Below, one piece after another: positions 10,381 to 14,358 of a DNA stretch of 64,000 nucleotides (within the stretch, counting starts at the first letter, position 1; each line of letters opens with the position of its first letter). Position numbers and translations under genes: made by a program. The stretch comes from Thermoanaerobacter pseudethanolicus ATCC 33223 (GTDB lineage Bacteria; Bacillota; Thermoanaerobacteria; Thermoanaerobacterales; Thermoanaerobacteraceae), in assembly GCF_000019085.1 (NCBI RefSeq), contig NC_010321.1, forward strand, positions 310,001-374,000, in the 5' to 3' direction. Under the pieces are notes generated by a model that searched no databases, had not been told where the DNA came from, and saw only the letters and a list, made by a program, of their open reading frames with translations.

Positions 10381-10995
10381 CTAATAAGCATAATTGAACA
10401 TTAATTCTATCTCCTTTGAAGTTTTAGGTCTCGATATATAATAACCTTGTATTTTGTCACAACCCCATTCCTTTAGCATACTAAGCTGTTCCTCTGTTTC
10501 TACCCCTTCCGCTACGACTTCATAGTTCATTTCCTTTGAGATATACAAAATTCCCTTAATTAATGTTTTTACTTTGTTTTCGTCAATCCTGTCAATAAGG
10601 CTTTTGTCCATCTTAATAGTGCTTATAGGAAACTCTATCATGTTTATTAAGGAAGAATATCCAACTCCAAAATCATCTAGCGAAATCTTTATTCCCCTTC
10701 TTAAAAATTCGTCTATTTTATTTACCCTTTGCTCTTTAATATCTAATATTTGAGTTTCAGTAAATTCTATGCCGATGAGATTTGATGGTATATTGTATTT
10801 ACTAATAAGCTCATCAAATTTAAAGAAAAACTCATCGTCCCTAAGCTGAAGGGGAGAAACATTGATGTTAACCTTAAGCTCGATACCCTTATTCCGCCAA
10901 TCTTTTATTTGTTTAAAAATATCTTCAATAATAAAAATACCAAATTCTTTGATAAGACATACGCCTGATAGATGAACGCGATCGTGATACCTGGA
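10381..10995 (-). pseudogene. EAL-domain (c-di-GMP phosphodiesterase) gene, 5'-truncated
   Basis: About 195 residues of an EAL domain are readable on the minus strand. Motifs present are NINVSPLQL, IEFTETQIL, SLDDFGVGYSSL, the substrate loop through IKMDKSLID, VAEGVETEEQ and the C-terminal GYYISRPKT. The first strand with the actual EAL motif and the preceding GGDEF or sensor part are missing; upstream of LIKEFGIFIIEDIF the frame turns into unrelated sequence around 10990. Without the first metal ligand the product cannot hydrolyse c-di-GMP, so I call it a pseudogene although the remaining frame is intact. It lies next to the broken ABC ATPase and phage-type genes, indicating a rearranged region. 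Confidence 0.75.
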
Positions 10996-11163
10996 AAGTA
11001 GTAGGATTTGAAGCAAAGCAAGCTCTTAGCACTTTTGAGGAATTTACCTACAAAAGGCGCATTTACATTTTTTATTTTTTATATAAACTTGTTAATTTTC
11101 TTTGCATATTATATGATTATGATAGAAGAATTTACAAAATTTATTTTAATGGTGGTGAGTGAA

Positions 11164-11823
11164 GTGCTCATAGCTATTGATCCAGGTCACGGAGGGAAAG
11201 ATCCGGGAGCAGTGGTTGAAAACTATAAGGAAAAAGACTTAAATCTAGATATCGCTTTAAAATTAAGGGAGATTTTATTGGACAAAAATATAAGCGTGAT
11301 TATGACAAGAGATAAAGATGAAACTGTAGATTTGCAACAAAGGTGTGATATTGCTAATAAGAACAAAGTAGACTACTTTATTTCAATTCATTGCAATAGT
11401 TTTAAGGACCCTACTGCAAATGGTACGGAAACTTATGCATATCCGGGAAGCATTGTAGGCCAAAATTTAGCTCAATATGTCCAAAATGAGATAGTAGAAA
11501 TGTTAAAAACGGCGAATAGGGGGGTAAAGTATGCAACTTTTTATGTTTTAAAACACACCGTAATGCCAGCAATATTGGTTGAAACAGCTTTTATGTCAAA
11601 TCCGCAAAATTTAGATTTGCTTTTACACAGACCAGATATTTTTGCACAGGCGATTTCAAATGGGATAATTAAATTTTTAGAAAGTATAAATTATCAACAA
11701 ACTGATGATATTAAAAAATTGCGCAGGAAAGGGATTATAAATGAGCATTATGATCCTAAAAGTTTTGTCACATGGGGAGAATTTGCTTCTGTTATAATAA
11801 AAATATTGGGGGGAACAAAATGA
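11164..11823 (+). CDS. N-acetylmuramoyl-L-alanine amidase (Amidase_3), phage-endolysin-like
   Basis: The protein has 219 residues. The catalytic domain starts at once with IAIDPGHGGKDPGA (zinc His), then the conserved Glu in YKEKDLNL, SIHCNS (zinc His) and the catalytic Glu in VETAFMSN. The C-terminal ~40 residues (IKKLRRKGIINEHYDPKSF, then VTWGEFASVI) resemble the tail module of Clostridial prophage endolysins. It cleaves the amide between MurNAc and the stem peptide. GTG 11164 is preferred, with GGTGGTGAG just upstream and the fold beginning two residues later; the longer frame from 11008 would add an unlikely hydrophobic leader. ATGA overlap couples it to a holin gene. Confidence 0.85.
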   Translation: MLIAIDPGHGGKDPGAVVENYKEKDLNLDIALKLREILLDKNISVIMTRDKDETVDLQQRCDIANKNKVDYFISIHCNSFKDPTANGTETYAYPGSIVGQNLAQYVQNEIVEMLKTANRGVKYATFYVLKHTVMPAILVETAFMSNPQNLDLLLHRPDIFAQAISNGIIKFLESINYQQTDDIKKLRRKGIINEHYDPKSFVTWGEFASVIIKILGGTK

Positions 11824-12158
11824 GAGATTTGATTATGACAATTTTGACTGCTGGTGTTCAACTTGGTATAATGGTCGTGCTTGGATATTTGATTGATTAT
11901 TTAAATACCAAAATTGGTATGGAAAAAATGAAAAGATATTACGAAATTGCAAAAACTTTTGTGCAAGCAGTAGAACAACAAATAGGGCCTGGCAAAGGAC
12001 CAGATAAGAAAACAGAAGTTTTTAATTTATTAAAGAAAGTGATTGGCAATAAGTTGACAGATGAAGAGATAGATAAATTAATAGAAGCGGCAGTTTTTGA
12101 AATGAATTATATATTGAAATTGAAAGGTCTAGAAAAGCAAGCTGAAGTGAATAAGTAA
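11820..12158 (+). CDS. Phage-type holin, LLH family
   Basis: This 112-residue protein has one N-terminal membrane helix (residues ~4-26) followed by a long amphipathic, charged region with the conserved patch YEIAKTFVQAVEQQIGPGKG and a C-terminal helix ending in Lys/Glu. I recall this layout for the LLH family of phage holins. It would form membrane lesions allowing the amidase out. Its ATG overlaps the amidase stop (ATGA), with a G-rich ribosome site. No other phage structural gene is present, so the pair is a phage remnant or a domesticated lysis cassette. Confidence 0.75.
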   Translation: MRDLIMTILTAGVQLGIMVVLGYLIDYLNTKIGMEKMKRYYEIAKTFVQAVEQQIGPGKGPDKKTEVFNLLKKVIGNKLTDEEIDKLIEAAVFEMNYILKLKGLEKQAEVNK

Positions 12159-12345: not shown

Positions 12346-12374
12346 TTGCAAACTTGAAAAATTTTTTGTATAAT
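12346..12374 (+). promoter_or_regulatory. Promoter of the P-loop protein gene at 12408
   Basis: TTGCAA at 12346-12351 and TATAAT at 12369-12374 with 17 bp spacing, 33 bp ahead of the ATG. The preceding 150 bp hold nothing else recognisable. Confidence 0.6.
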
Positions 12375-12407: not shown

Positions 12408-14309
12408 ATGGACTTTTCTCTCATTACTAATAAGGAAACAATGGAAATTATAAGTAAAATGAGCCTACCAGAAGAAGTAGAGGAAATATTAAAAAAGTGT
12501 CCTAAAATAACAATTCCAGAAAGTAGACAACATCTTCTTGAAATTTCTGTTGGGGGGAATAATGACTTTTTTGAAGTTTTTTATGATGTTCCAGGGAAAG
12601 GAAAAGTATTAGAAGCCACCGTGGCAAGATGTAAAAACGGATTAGCAGTTAATTATCCTGAGCCTTATATGAGAAGGAGAGAGCCAGACTGTCTCGTCGT
12701 TGCCGATAATGGGGAGACAGATAAGCCAAGATTTATGGAAAGATATAAATACGATTTTGAGGAGTTAAGACAGAAGACTTTTGAATGGTTAAAAGATCAG
12801 AATTTAATTGTTATGCCTTTTATGGCCGGTGGTGAAGAATACGGCTATCCTTCGCTTTTATTGGCACCCGAAAATGCTGGTTTCTTTGCTACAGCTCTTG
12901 CAGATATTCAAGGATTTATACCTAAAAAGGAAATACCGGAAGGTTTTACTCCGAAAGCAATAGTATATTCAGCTCCTCCATTTAGGCATACCCACTTTAA
13001 TGGAAAGCAAGTAGTTGTACACAACCGCTTAGAGAATCTTTATGAACTTTTTTCGTATAACTTGTATCCTGGCCCAAGTGCAAAAAAAGGAATATATGGA
13101 GTACTCTTAACAATGGGAGAAAAAGAAGGGTGGATTACTGCTCATGCTTCTGCAGTAAGAATAATTACTCCTTATGACAATATATTGACTATTATGCATG
13201 AGGGTGCCAGCGGTGGCGGAAAGAGTGAAATGTTGGAACAGATTCATAGAGAACCTGATGGTTCTATAAAGGTAGGACGCAATTTAGTAACAGGGGATGA
13301 AATATATGTAGAGTTGAAAGAGGCTTGTGAGTTGCAGCCTGTAACTGACGATATGGCCTTATGTCATCCTAAATTGCAGCAAGGCAAAAAGTTGGTTATA
13401 AAAGATGCAGAAAAAGGTTGGTTTATACGTGTAGATCATATGAATGAATATGGAACAGACCCTCATTTTGAAAAGTTATGTATCTATCCTAAAGAGCCTT
13501 TAATCTTTTTAAACATAGACGGAGTGCCTAAATCCACTTGTCTTATATGGGAACATATTATGGATGCACCTGGCAAACCTTGTCCTAATCCTCGTGTAGT
13601 TATGCCAAAAAGATTTATGCCAAATGTAGTTGATGAACCTGTAGAAGTGGATGTAAGAAGTTTTGGTGTGAGGACTCCGCCCTCCTCAAAGGAAAAACCA
13701 TCATATGGGATAATAGGTATGTTACATTTGTTACCACCTGCTCTTGCTTGGTTGTGGAGACTAGTGGCGCCGAGAGGTCATGCAAATCCCAGCATTGTAG
13801 AAACTGAAGGGCTTCAAAGTGAAGGAGTAGGCTCATATTGGCCTTTTGCAACGGGGAAAAGAGTAACCCATGCAAATCTCTTGCTCCAACAGATTATAAA
13901 TACGCCTGGTACTCGATACATTCTTGTTCCAAATCAACACATAGGTGTATGGAAAGTTGGATTTATGCCTGAATGGATAGCTCGTGAATATCTTGCAAGA
14001 AGAGGAAGCGTGAGATTCAGGCCAGACCAAATTACACCAGCGAGAAGTAGTCTCTTAGGTTATGCTTTAAATACATTAAAAATAAACGGAAGCTTTATTC
14101 CTCGTGAATTACTGCAAGTCAACAAGCAGCCAGAAGTGGGAGATGAAGGATATGACAAGGGTGCAGAGATGTTAAATGAATTTTTCAAAAGAGAATTAAA
14201 ACAATTTTTAGTACCTGAACTTGATCCCCTCGGCAGAAAGATTATTGAAACGTGTTTAGAAAATGGAACTTTAGAGGACTATATAAAACTTTTAGGAGAT
14301 TATAGATAA
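12408..14309 (+). CDS. Uncharacterised protein with HPrK/PEPCK-like P-loop (DUF4914-type)
   Basis: The protein has 633 residues and is soluble, with no signal peptide. The clearest motif is GASGGGKSEM at residues ~266-275, a P-loop of the form seen in HPr kinase and PEP carboxykinase (GxSGxGKSE/T) followed by an acidic/His-rich stretch (EQIHREPDG, DEIYVELKE). Other strongly patterned blocks are ARCKNGLAVNYPEPYMRRREPD, split here as the N-terminal substrate-like block, CPNPRVVMPKRFMP, and GVGSYWPFATGKRVTHANLL. From memory it matches the family named DUF4914; its reaction is not known to me. A kinase or phospho-transfer role is inferred from the P-loop only. GAGGTGG precedes ATG 12408. It is monocistronic, with its own promoter and terminator. 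Confidence 0.75.
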   Translation: MDFSLITNKETMEIISKMSLPEEVEEILKKCPKITIPESRQHLLEISVGGNNDFFEVFYDVPGKGKVLEATVARCKNGLAVNYPEPYMRRREPDCLVVADNGETDKPRFMERYKYDFEELRQKTFEWLKDQNLIVMPFMAGGEEYGYPSLLLAPENAGFFATALADIQGFIPKKEIPEGFTPKAIVYSAPPFRHTHFNGKQVVVHNRLENLYELFSYNLYPGPSAKKGIYGVLLTMGEKEGWITAHASAVRIITPYDNILTIMHEGASGGGKSEMLEQIHREPDGSIKVGRNLVTGDEIYVELKEACELQPVTDDMALCHPKLQQGKKLVIKDAEKGWFIRVDHMNEYGTDPHFEKLCIYPKEPLIFLNIDGVPKSTCLIWEHIMDAPGKPCPNPRVVMPKRFMPNVVDEPVEVDVRSFGVRTPPSSKEKPSYGIIGMLHLLPPALAWLWRLVAPRGHANPSIVETEGLQSEGVGSYWPFATGKRVTHANLLLQQIINTPGTRYILVPNQHIGVWKVGFMPEWIAREYLARRGSVRFRPDQITPARSSLLGYALNTLKINGSFIPRELLQVNKQPEVGDEGYDKGAEMLNEFFKRELKQFLVPELDPLGRKIIETCLENGTLEDYIKLLGDYR

Positions 14310-14320
14310 ATTGAAAGAGA

Positions 14321-14358
14321 AAAGAGCCTGTACTAAGTTGTATGGGCTCTTTTTTTGT
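14321..14358 (+). terminator. Terminator of the P-loop protein gene
   Basis: AAAGAGCC at 14321-14328 pairs with GGCTCTTT at 14345-14352, followed by a run of seven T. The palindromic element begins directly after it. Confidence 0.8.

What the first reader, a model, noticed from the sequence alone, without database searches (positions are those of the whole stretch)
12408..14309. Uncharacterised 633-residue protein with an HPrK/PEPCK-type P-loop
GASGGGKSEM near residue 266 is a strong nucleotide-binding loop of the PEPCK/HPr-kinase type, within a large protein of otherwise unknown blocks. The gene has its own promoter and terminator and the protein is rich in conserved-looking Pro/Gly/His/Trp motifs, suggesting an enzyme. 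I recall the family only as DUF4914. A new phosphotransfer or carboxykinase-like reaction is possible.
Basis: partly seen in the sequence, partly recalled or inferred. Interest (0 to 1): 0.6.

Follow-up and report, generated by a model that had tools for sequence, protein, structure and literature searches.

The report
Uncharacterised fourth PEP carboxykinase branch (DUF4914)
A widespread bacterial protein that databases list only as 'unknown function' has the shape and the catalytic residues of PEP carboxykinase, the enzyme that joins carbon dioxide to central metabolism, so it is probably an overlooked fourth type of that enzyme.

Summary
The gene is real: 12408-14309 (+), 633 codons, Pfam DUF4914 (1110 bits), with a GASGGGKSEM loop at residues 266-275. 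No sequence search of the PDB finds a relative. A confident AlphaFold2 model (pLDDT 91.8) has the complete PEP carboxykinase (PEPCK) fold: PPi-PEPCK Z 31.4 over 574 residues, ATP-PEPCK Z 30.3, GTP-PEPCK Z 26.4. By profile comparison DUF4914 is about as close to ATP-PEPCK (score 89.1) as ATP- is to GTP-PEPCK (94.2); 18 shuffled or reversed controls reach at most 30.4. The PEPCK catalytic residues (substrate Arg, metal Lys and His, P-loop Lys, Asp-Asp, phosphate Arg) are conserved in 83 of 83 sequences. The window's genome has only a broken ATP-PEPCK gene, no GTP-PEPCK and no PEP carboxylase. I conclude it is a fourth, uncharacterised PEPCK branch interconverting oxaloacetate and PEP + CO2, probably anaplerotic. 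The phosphoryl donor is unresolved: ATP-pocket residues are missing, and PPi is the boldest candidate. The HPr-kinase reading is much weaker. Nothing biochemical was tested.

The parts
12408..14309 (+). DUF4914 gene, 633-aa PEPCK-like protein
   Evidence: Pfam PF16260 E=0, 1110 bits; AF2 pLDDT 91.8; PEPCK fold
12678..12680 (+). Arg91, aligned with the substrate arginine of PEPCK (Arg65, E. coli numbering recalled)
   Evidence: hhalign columns; 83 of 83
13083..13088 (+). Lys226-Lys227, aligned with the KK pair of ATP-PEPCK (Mn ligand Lys213, recalled)
   Evidence: 83 of 83
13143..13145 (+). His246, aligned with the Mn-ligand histidine (His232, recalled)
   Evidence: 83 of 83
13203..13232 (+). 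P-loop GASGGGKSEM, residues 266-275, aligned with GLSGTGKTTLS of ATP-PEPCK
   Evidence: K272 and S273 83 of 83
13347..13352 (+). Asp314-Asp315, aligned with the DD of IGDDEHGW in ATP-PEPCK
   Evidence: 83 of 83
13587..13595 (+). Asn394-Pro-Arg396, aligned with NTR of ATP-PEPCK (Arg333, recalled)
   Evidence: 83 of 83
12346..12374 (+). promoter-like site TTGCAA-17-TATAAT (consensus match only)
   Evidence: total sites not above shuffles
14317..14356 (+). terminator-like hairpin with T run just after the stop codon
   Evidence: total sites not above shuffles

Best explanation
DUF4914 is a fourth, uncharacterised branch of the PEP carboxykinase family. It binds oxaloacetate or PEP next to a Mn2+ held by Lys227, His246 and Asp315, holds the phosphoryl donor with the 266-273 P-loop and Arg396, and catalyses oxaloacetate + donor <=> PEP + CO2. 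In this genome, which has lost its ATP-PEPCK, it most likely runs towards oxaloacetate (anaplerosis, feeding aspartate). Shown here by computation: gene, fold, homology, conserved residues, loss of the ATP-PEPCK gene. Inferred: the reaction, its direction, the metal, and the donor (PPi, ATP or GTP undecided).
For: AF2 pLDDT 91.8, pTM 0.90. Foldseek's best 50 PDB rows are all PEPCK entries, E 2.8e-23 at best; VIA-align Z 31.4 / 30.3 / 26.4 for PPi- / ATP- / GTP-PEPCK across residues 5-630. hhalign to ATP-PEPCK: probability 96.9, score 89.1, against 94.2 for ATP versus GTP; 18 controls at most 30.4. Catalytic positions aligned and invariant in 83 of 83. Own ATP-PEPCK broken, no GTP-PEPCK (23), no PEPC (72, 74). 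Thermotoga maritima carries DUF4914 but neither ATP- nor GTP-PEPCK (controls), and a published gene table lists no pepck for three Thermotoga genomes (PMC3561251, section 9).
Against: No biochemical evidence. HMMER finds no PEPCK in the PDB even with a 16-sequence profile. The profile match to GTP-PEPCK is only 53%. 16 of 40 DUF4914 genomes also hold an intact-looking ATP- or GTP-PEPCK, so it is not a simple replacement. Recurrent neighbours include purine genes, which could mean another substrate. A shared fold does not prove a shared reaction.
Confidence: 0.74

Rival explanations
1. As above, but the donor is PPi (and Pi in the carboxylating direction): PEP + CO2 + Pi <=> oxaloacetate + PPi, a short form of PPi-PEPCK that would also be a source of PPi.
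For: The closest structural match with the highest Z is PPi-PEPCK (8e1u, Z 31.4, 574 aligned, 18% identical). The aligned adenine-pocket residues of ATP-PEPCK (R449, T455, recalled) are not conserved. One Spirochaetales locus has MpsC, one ORF, DUF4914, adenylate kinase, one ORF, then PPDK on one strand (L060). PPi-PEPCK commonly coexists with ATP/GTP-PEPCK (PMC8100219, passages), as DUF4914 does in 16 of 40 genomes.
Against: Z 31.4 and 30.3 are almost tied and the second PPi-PEPCK entry scores 29.5. F519 aligns with a guanine-pocket Phe of GTP-PEPCK. PPDK is near-universal in the phylum (339 of 398), so it discriminates little. No PPi-PEPCK sequence could be obtained for a profile test.
Confidence: 0.3
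2. The donor is a nucleotide (ATP/ADP or GTP/GDP) bound by a re-arranged base pocket; it is a divergent nucleotide PEPCK.
For: The P-loop, DD and Arg396 are shared with nucleotide PEPCKs; F519 is invariant and aligned with the guanine-stacking Phe530 of GTP-PEPCK (residue number recalled).
Against: R449 and T455 of ATP-PEPCK have no counterpart; the other guanine-pocket aromatics are not evident in the alignment.
Confidence: 0.38
3. A PEPCK fold re-used for another substrate, for example a carboxylation or kinase step tied to purine synthesis.
For: PurE (15 of 88 loci), PurK (6), adenylate kinase (3) and DUF3360 (9), whose predicted fold is closest to nucleobase transporters, recur on the same strand nearby. 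PEPCK-like kinases of small molecules such as SerK are known (recalled).
Against: All the aligned residues that in PEPCK bind oxaloacetate/PEP and Mn are kept in 83 of 83. Purine genes share CO2/bicarbonate and aspartate with PEPCK, which explains the linkage without a new substrate.
Confidence: 0.18
4. An HPr-kinase-like protein kinase/phosphorylase.
For: GxSGxGKSE motif as in HPr kinase; weak profile match (probability 21, score 36).
Against: Match to ATP-PEPCK is far stronger (97, score 89); the genome has a separate HPr kinase at G000:C1:615873-616382; no Hpr_kinase_C hit up to E=1.
Confidence: 0.03

Closest known systems
PPi-dependent PEP carboxykinase (EC 4.1.1.38; PDB 8e1u, 6k31)
   Same: Best structural match, Z 31.4, 574 of 633 residues aligned, 18% identical.
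   Different: Chains of about 1110 residues against 633; sequence profile not compared; PPi use untested.
ATP-dependent PEP carboxykinase (PF01293; PDB 2pc9, 1aq2)
   Same: Full-length fold (Z 30.3), profile probability 96.9, catalytic residues aligned.
   Different: DUF4914 is about 100 residues longer, has its own Pfam family, and lacks the adenine-pocket R449/T455; HMMER does not connect them.
GTP-dependent PEP carboxykinase (PF00821; PDB 2zci)
   Same: Fold (Z 26.4, 515 aligned); similar length; KK...EGW..H and the NPxR-like motif line up.
   Different: Weakest of the three by profile (probability 53) and Z; guanine pocket only partly suggested.
HPr kinase/phosphorylase (PF07475)
   Same: P-loop GxSGxGKSE.
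   Different: About half the length; profile probability only 21.

Membership tests
Pfam DUF4914 (PF16260) | score above the curated cut-off | tested here: met
   1110 bits against 25.7, residues 20-628
PEP carboxykinase superfamily | PEPCK fold over the whole chain | tested here: met
   on a model of pLDDT 91.8
PEP carboxykinase superfamily | P-loop GxSGxGK[TS] and following Asp-Asp | tested here: met
   G266-S273 and D314-D315, 83 of 83 except G270 79 of 83
PEP carboxykinase superfamily | Mn ligands Lys and His and substrate/phosphate arginines | tested here: met
   K227, H246, R91, R396 aligned, 83 of 83; metal binding itself not tested
PEP carboxykinase superfamily | oxaloacetate/PEP interconversion | not testable with these tools
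   needs an enzyme assay
ATP-PEPCK (EC 4.1.1.49) | match to PF01293 above cut-off | tested here: not met
   not among Pfam hits up to E=1
ATP-PEPCK (EC 4.1.1.49) | adenine-pocket Arg449 and Thr455 (recalled) | tested here: not met
   gap before M520, and A525, in the profile alignment; the alignment in this stretch is of limited certainty
GTP-PEPCK (EC 4.1.1.32) | match to PF00821 above cut-off | tested here: not met
   not among Pfam hits up to E=1
GTP-PEPCK (EC 4.1.1.32) | guanine pocket aromatics (Phe517, 525, 530; recalled) | tested here: inconclusive
   only F519 aligns, with Phe530
PPi-PEPCK (EC 4.1.1.38) | structural match | tested here: met
   Z 31.4 and 29.5 to 8e1u and 6k31
PPi-PEPCK (EC 4.1.1.38) | chain of about 1100 residues | tested here: not met
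   633 residues against 1108-1126 in the PDB chains
PPi-PEPCK (EC 4.1.1.38) | use of PPi/Pi | not testable with these tools
   needs an assay
HPr kinase | Hpr_kinase_C domain | tested here: not met
   no hit up to E=1; profile probability 21

The most novel reading that the evidence does not exclude
DUF4914 is a fourth class of PEP carboxykinase that uses PPi/Pi in place of a nucleotide. It makes oxaloacetate and PPi from PEP, CO2 and Pi in Thermotoga, Thermoanaerobacter, Spirochaete and Clostridia species; Thermotoga and Thermoanaerobacter are among genera reported to encode a PPi-dependent phosphofructokinase (PMC3561251, section 9). This would explain both how such bacteria make C4 acids without a recognised PEPCK or PEPC and where part of their PPi comes from.
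Probability: 0.28. Interest if true: 0.82.

Novelty: new variant of a known kind. Interest (0 to 1): 0.62.

Why it matters
PEPCK sits at the branch between glycolysis, C4 acids and CO2 fixation, and only three classes (ATP, GTP, PPi) are described in the review read here (PMC8100219, passages). A fourth class would occur in 40 of 398 sampled genomes of this phylum and in Spirochaetes, Bacteroidetes, Planctomycetes, Chloroflexi, Thermotogae and others. Metabolic models of Thermotoga and related thermophiles would gain a carboxylating step that they now lack, and the donor can be settled by one coupled assay.

Tried and rejected
PDB sequence searches with the protein and with a 16-sequence profile found no relative. 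Literature searches for DUF4914, PF16260 and DUF3360 found 0 papers in the open PMC library; other libraries were not searched. NCBIfam has no model for the protein.

I tested whether DUF4914 simply replaces the other PEPCKs. In 398 genomes, 8 of 40 DUF4914 genomes and 157 of 358 others have a strong ATP-PEPCK hit (odds ratio 0.32, p 0.0037). GTP-PEPCK goes the other way (8 of 40 against 36 of 358), and either kind is 16 of 40 against 193 of 358 (p 0.099). Relatedness is not corrected, so I claim no clean replacement. Before counting I set aside 14 weak ATP hits, 5 weak GTP hits, the window genome's own ATP-PEPCK fragments, and G383, whose DUF4914 hit is below cut-off. G095 and G280, whose DUF4914 copies are broken, stayed in the 40.

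PPDK presence does not discriminate (339 of 398 genomes over cut-off; all 40 DUF4914 genomes listed with E 0). The bicarbonate reading of the neighbour DUF3360 was weakened: its model (pLDDT 86.1) matches nucleobase transporters best (Z 28) and bicarbonate transporter BicA less (Z 21.9). MpsC is not part of the MpsAB transporter function in S. aureus (PMC6689103 and PMC8552792, passages), so its nearness is suggestive only.

A direct profile comparison with PPi-PEPCK was not possible: no family model is held, and a search centred on another phylum was not accepted.

Full report
THE OBSERVATION. The protein is 633 residues from the ATG at 12408. Pfam DUF4914 covers residues 20-628 with 1110 bits against a cut-off of 25.7. 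Promoter- and terminator-like sites flank it, but such sites are no more frequent in the region than in shuffles.

SPREAD. The window lies in G000 (one contig, 2,362,816 bases); the closest named relatives are Thermoanaerobacter and Caldanaerobacter (95% and 87% identity), so the source is probably in or near that genus (inference). DUF4914 is in 34 of 61 searched genomes, the own one and 60 relatives, and in 40 of 398 genomes drawn across the phylum above the family cut-off (41 at E <= 0.001). The 80 kept include Spirochaetes, Thermotogae, Dictyoglomus, Bacteroidetes, Planctomycetes, Chloroflexi, Omnitrophota and Elusimicrobia. The family is very conserved: outside the nearest genera, members are about 55-70% identical to the window protein.

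FOLD. A model from the window protein and 68 of the 80 loci (alignment A2) has mean pLDDT 91.8 and pTM 0.90. Foldseek's 50 listed PDB rows are all PEP carboxykinases (best E 2.8e-23; 118 rows at E <= 0.001). VIA-align gives PPi-PEPCK 8e1u Z 31.4 (rmsd 3.3, 574 aligned, 18% identical), ATP-PEPCK 2pc9 Z 30.3 (2.8, 488), PPi-PEPCK 6k31 Z 29.5 (3.4, 580), GTP-PEPCK 2zci Z 26.4 (3.2, 515). The PPi and ATP classes are close to tied. A review states that the PPi enzymes are not related to the ATP/GTP ones (PMC8100219, passages); here both solved PPi-PEPCKs align over the whole model together with the ATP and GTP enzymes.

HOMOLOGY BY SEQUENCE PROFILE. HMMER does not connect DUF4914 to PEPCK, but hhalign does. 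Against 15 ATP-PEPCKs: probability 96.9, score 89.1, 488 columns. Against 16 GTP-PEPCKs: probability 53, score 45.1. As a yardstick ATP against GTP scores 94.2. Sixteen column shuffles and two reversed alignments score at most 30.4. So DUF4914 is about as far from ATP-PEPCK as the GTP class is. HPr kinase (7 of the 9 loci examined gave a usable sequence) gives probability 21, score 36.3.

ACTIVE SITE. In the ATP-PEPCK alignment, R91 falls on the substrate arginine, Y220 on the substrate tyrosine, K226-K227 on the KK pair, H246 on the metal histidine, 266-273 on the P-loop, D314-D315 on the DD, and N394/R396 on the NxR motif. All of these residues are identical in 83 of 83 sequences, except G270 of the P-loop (79 of 83). 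The E. coli residue numbers and roles are recalled. The adenine-binding R449 and T455 have no counterpart (a gap before M520, and A525). F519 (83 of 83) aligns with Phe530 of the GTP enzyme. These residues argue for ordinary PEPCK chemistry and leave the donor open.

METABOLIC GAP. In the window's genome ATP-PEPCK is only two fragments. Reading the locus shows frame breaks, and the gene jumps from just before the P-loop to the C-terminal end (L160). GTP-PEPCK is absent, PEP carboxylase of both kinds is absent, and there is one PYC_OADA match in a 469-aa frame, which could be an oxaloacetate decarboxylase or a split pyruvate carboxylase subunit. Across the 40 DUF4914 genomes: PEPC over cut-off 0, archaeal-type PEPC 6, full-length pyruvate carboxylase frames 2 (G104, G387), strong ATP- or GTP-PEPCK 16. 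This leaves 16 genomes with none of these. Two of the 16 (G166, a single contig at 99% completeness, and G243) lack PYC_OADA as well. Thermotoga maritima, a control genome, has DUF4914 and no PF01293 or PF00821, and a published table lists no pepck for three Thermotoga genomes (PMC3561251, section 9). Against this, 16 of 40 genomes keep another PEPCK, and T. maritima has a PYC_OADA match.

NEIGHBOURS. In 88 loci (window, eight genome stretches and 79 of the 80 loci; ORFs called mechanically), MpsC (PF10057) lies near DUF4914 in 21, of which 19 are on the same strand within 1.2 kb; these include Clostridia, Spirochaetes and BRC1. PurE is in 15 (all same strand), DUF3360 in 9, PurK in 6, adenylate kinase in 3, and PPDK in 1 (family names). 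The loci are related, so these are not independent events, and 28 of 88 have no close same-strand neighbour. PurE/PurK and PEPCK share CO2/bicarbonate and, through oxaloacetate and aspartate, purine synthesis; adenylate kinase and PPDK share PEP, AMP and PPi. This fits a carboxylating role but is not specific. The window itself shows none of this linkage: upstream are an amidase and a phage-type holin, downstream a convergent pair that reads as kbl and tdh (names recalled).

CONCLUSION. What is shown: a conserved family with the complete PEPCK fold (by prediction) and catalytic residues, present where other C4-forming enzymes are sometimes missing. What is inferred: that it is a PEPCK, running mostly towards oxaloacetate. 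What is open: the donor. It is a new variant of a known kind; its link to PEPCK was not found in print in the searches named, and I could not check whether Pfam or InterPro already place it in a PEPCK clan.

Noticed in passing
   Followed up: partly
L160 (own genome G000:C1:763000-766000): The genome's ATP-PEPCK gene is broken by frame breaks and a large internal deletion, while same-genus genomes G003 and G004 keep full-length copies.
   Followed up: partly
L053:4933-6312 and eight other loci: DUF3360 membrane proteins next to DUF4914 are predicted to have the UraA/SLC26 transporter fold, closest to nucleobase transporters (Z 28), with BicA at Z 21.9.
   Followed up: partly
window 11008-12158: An N-acetylmuramoyl-L-alanine amidase followed by a phage LLH-type holin, kept upstream of DUF4914 in four loci (L017, L046, L047, window).
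   Followed up: no
window 10381-11016 (-): A 211-aa protein that begins inside an EAL domain (matches profile positions 59-236), probably truncated.
   Followed up: no
G153, G234, G080, G281 (L152-L155): A divergent ATP-PEPCK-like group at E about 1e-86 to 1e-91, well apart from the main group at about 1e-197 and lower.
   Followed up: no
G095:C1:1076688-1078554 and G280:C14:19334-19952: Broken DUF4914 copies: many in-frame stops in G095, a short fragment with two stops in G280, i.e. decaying genes in two lineages.
   Followed up: no
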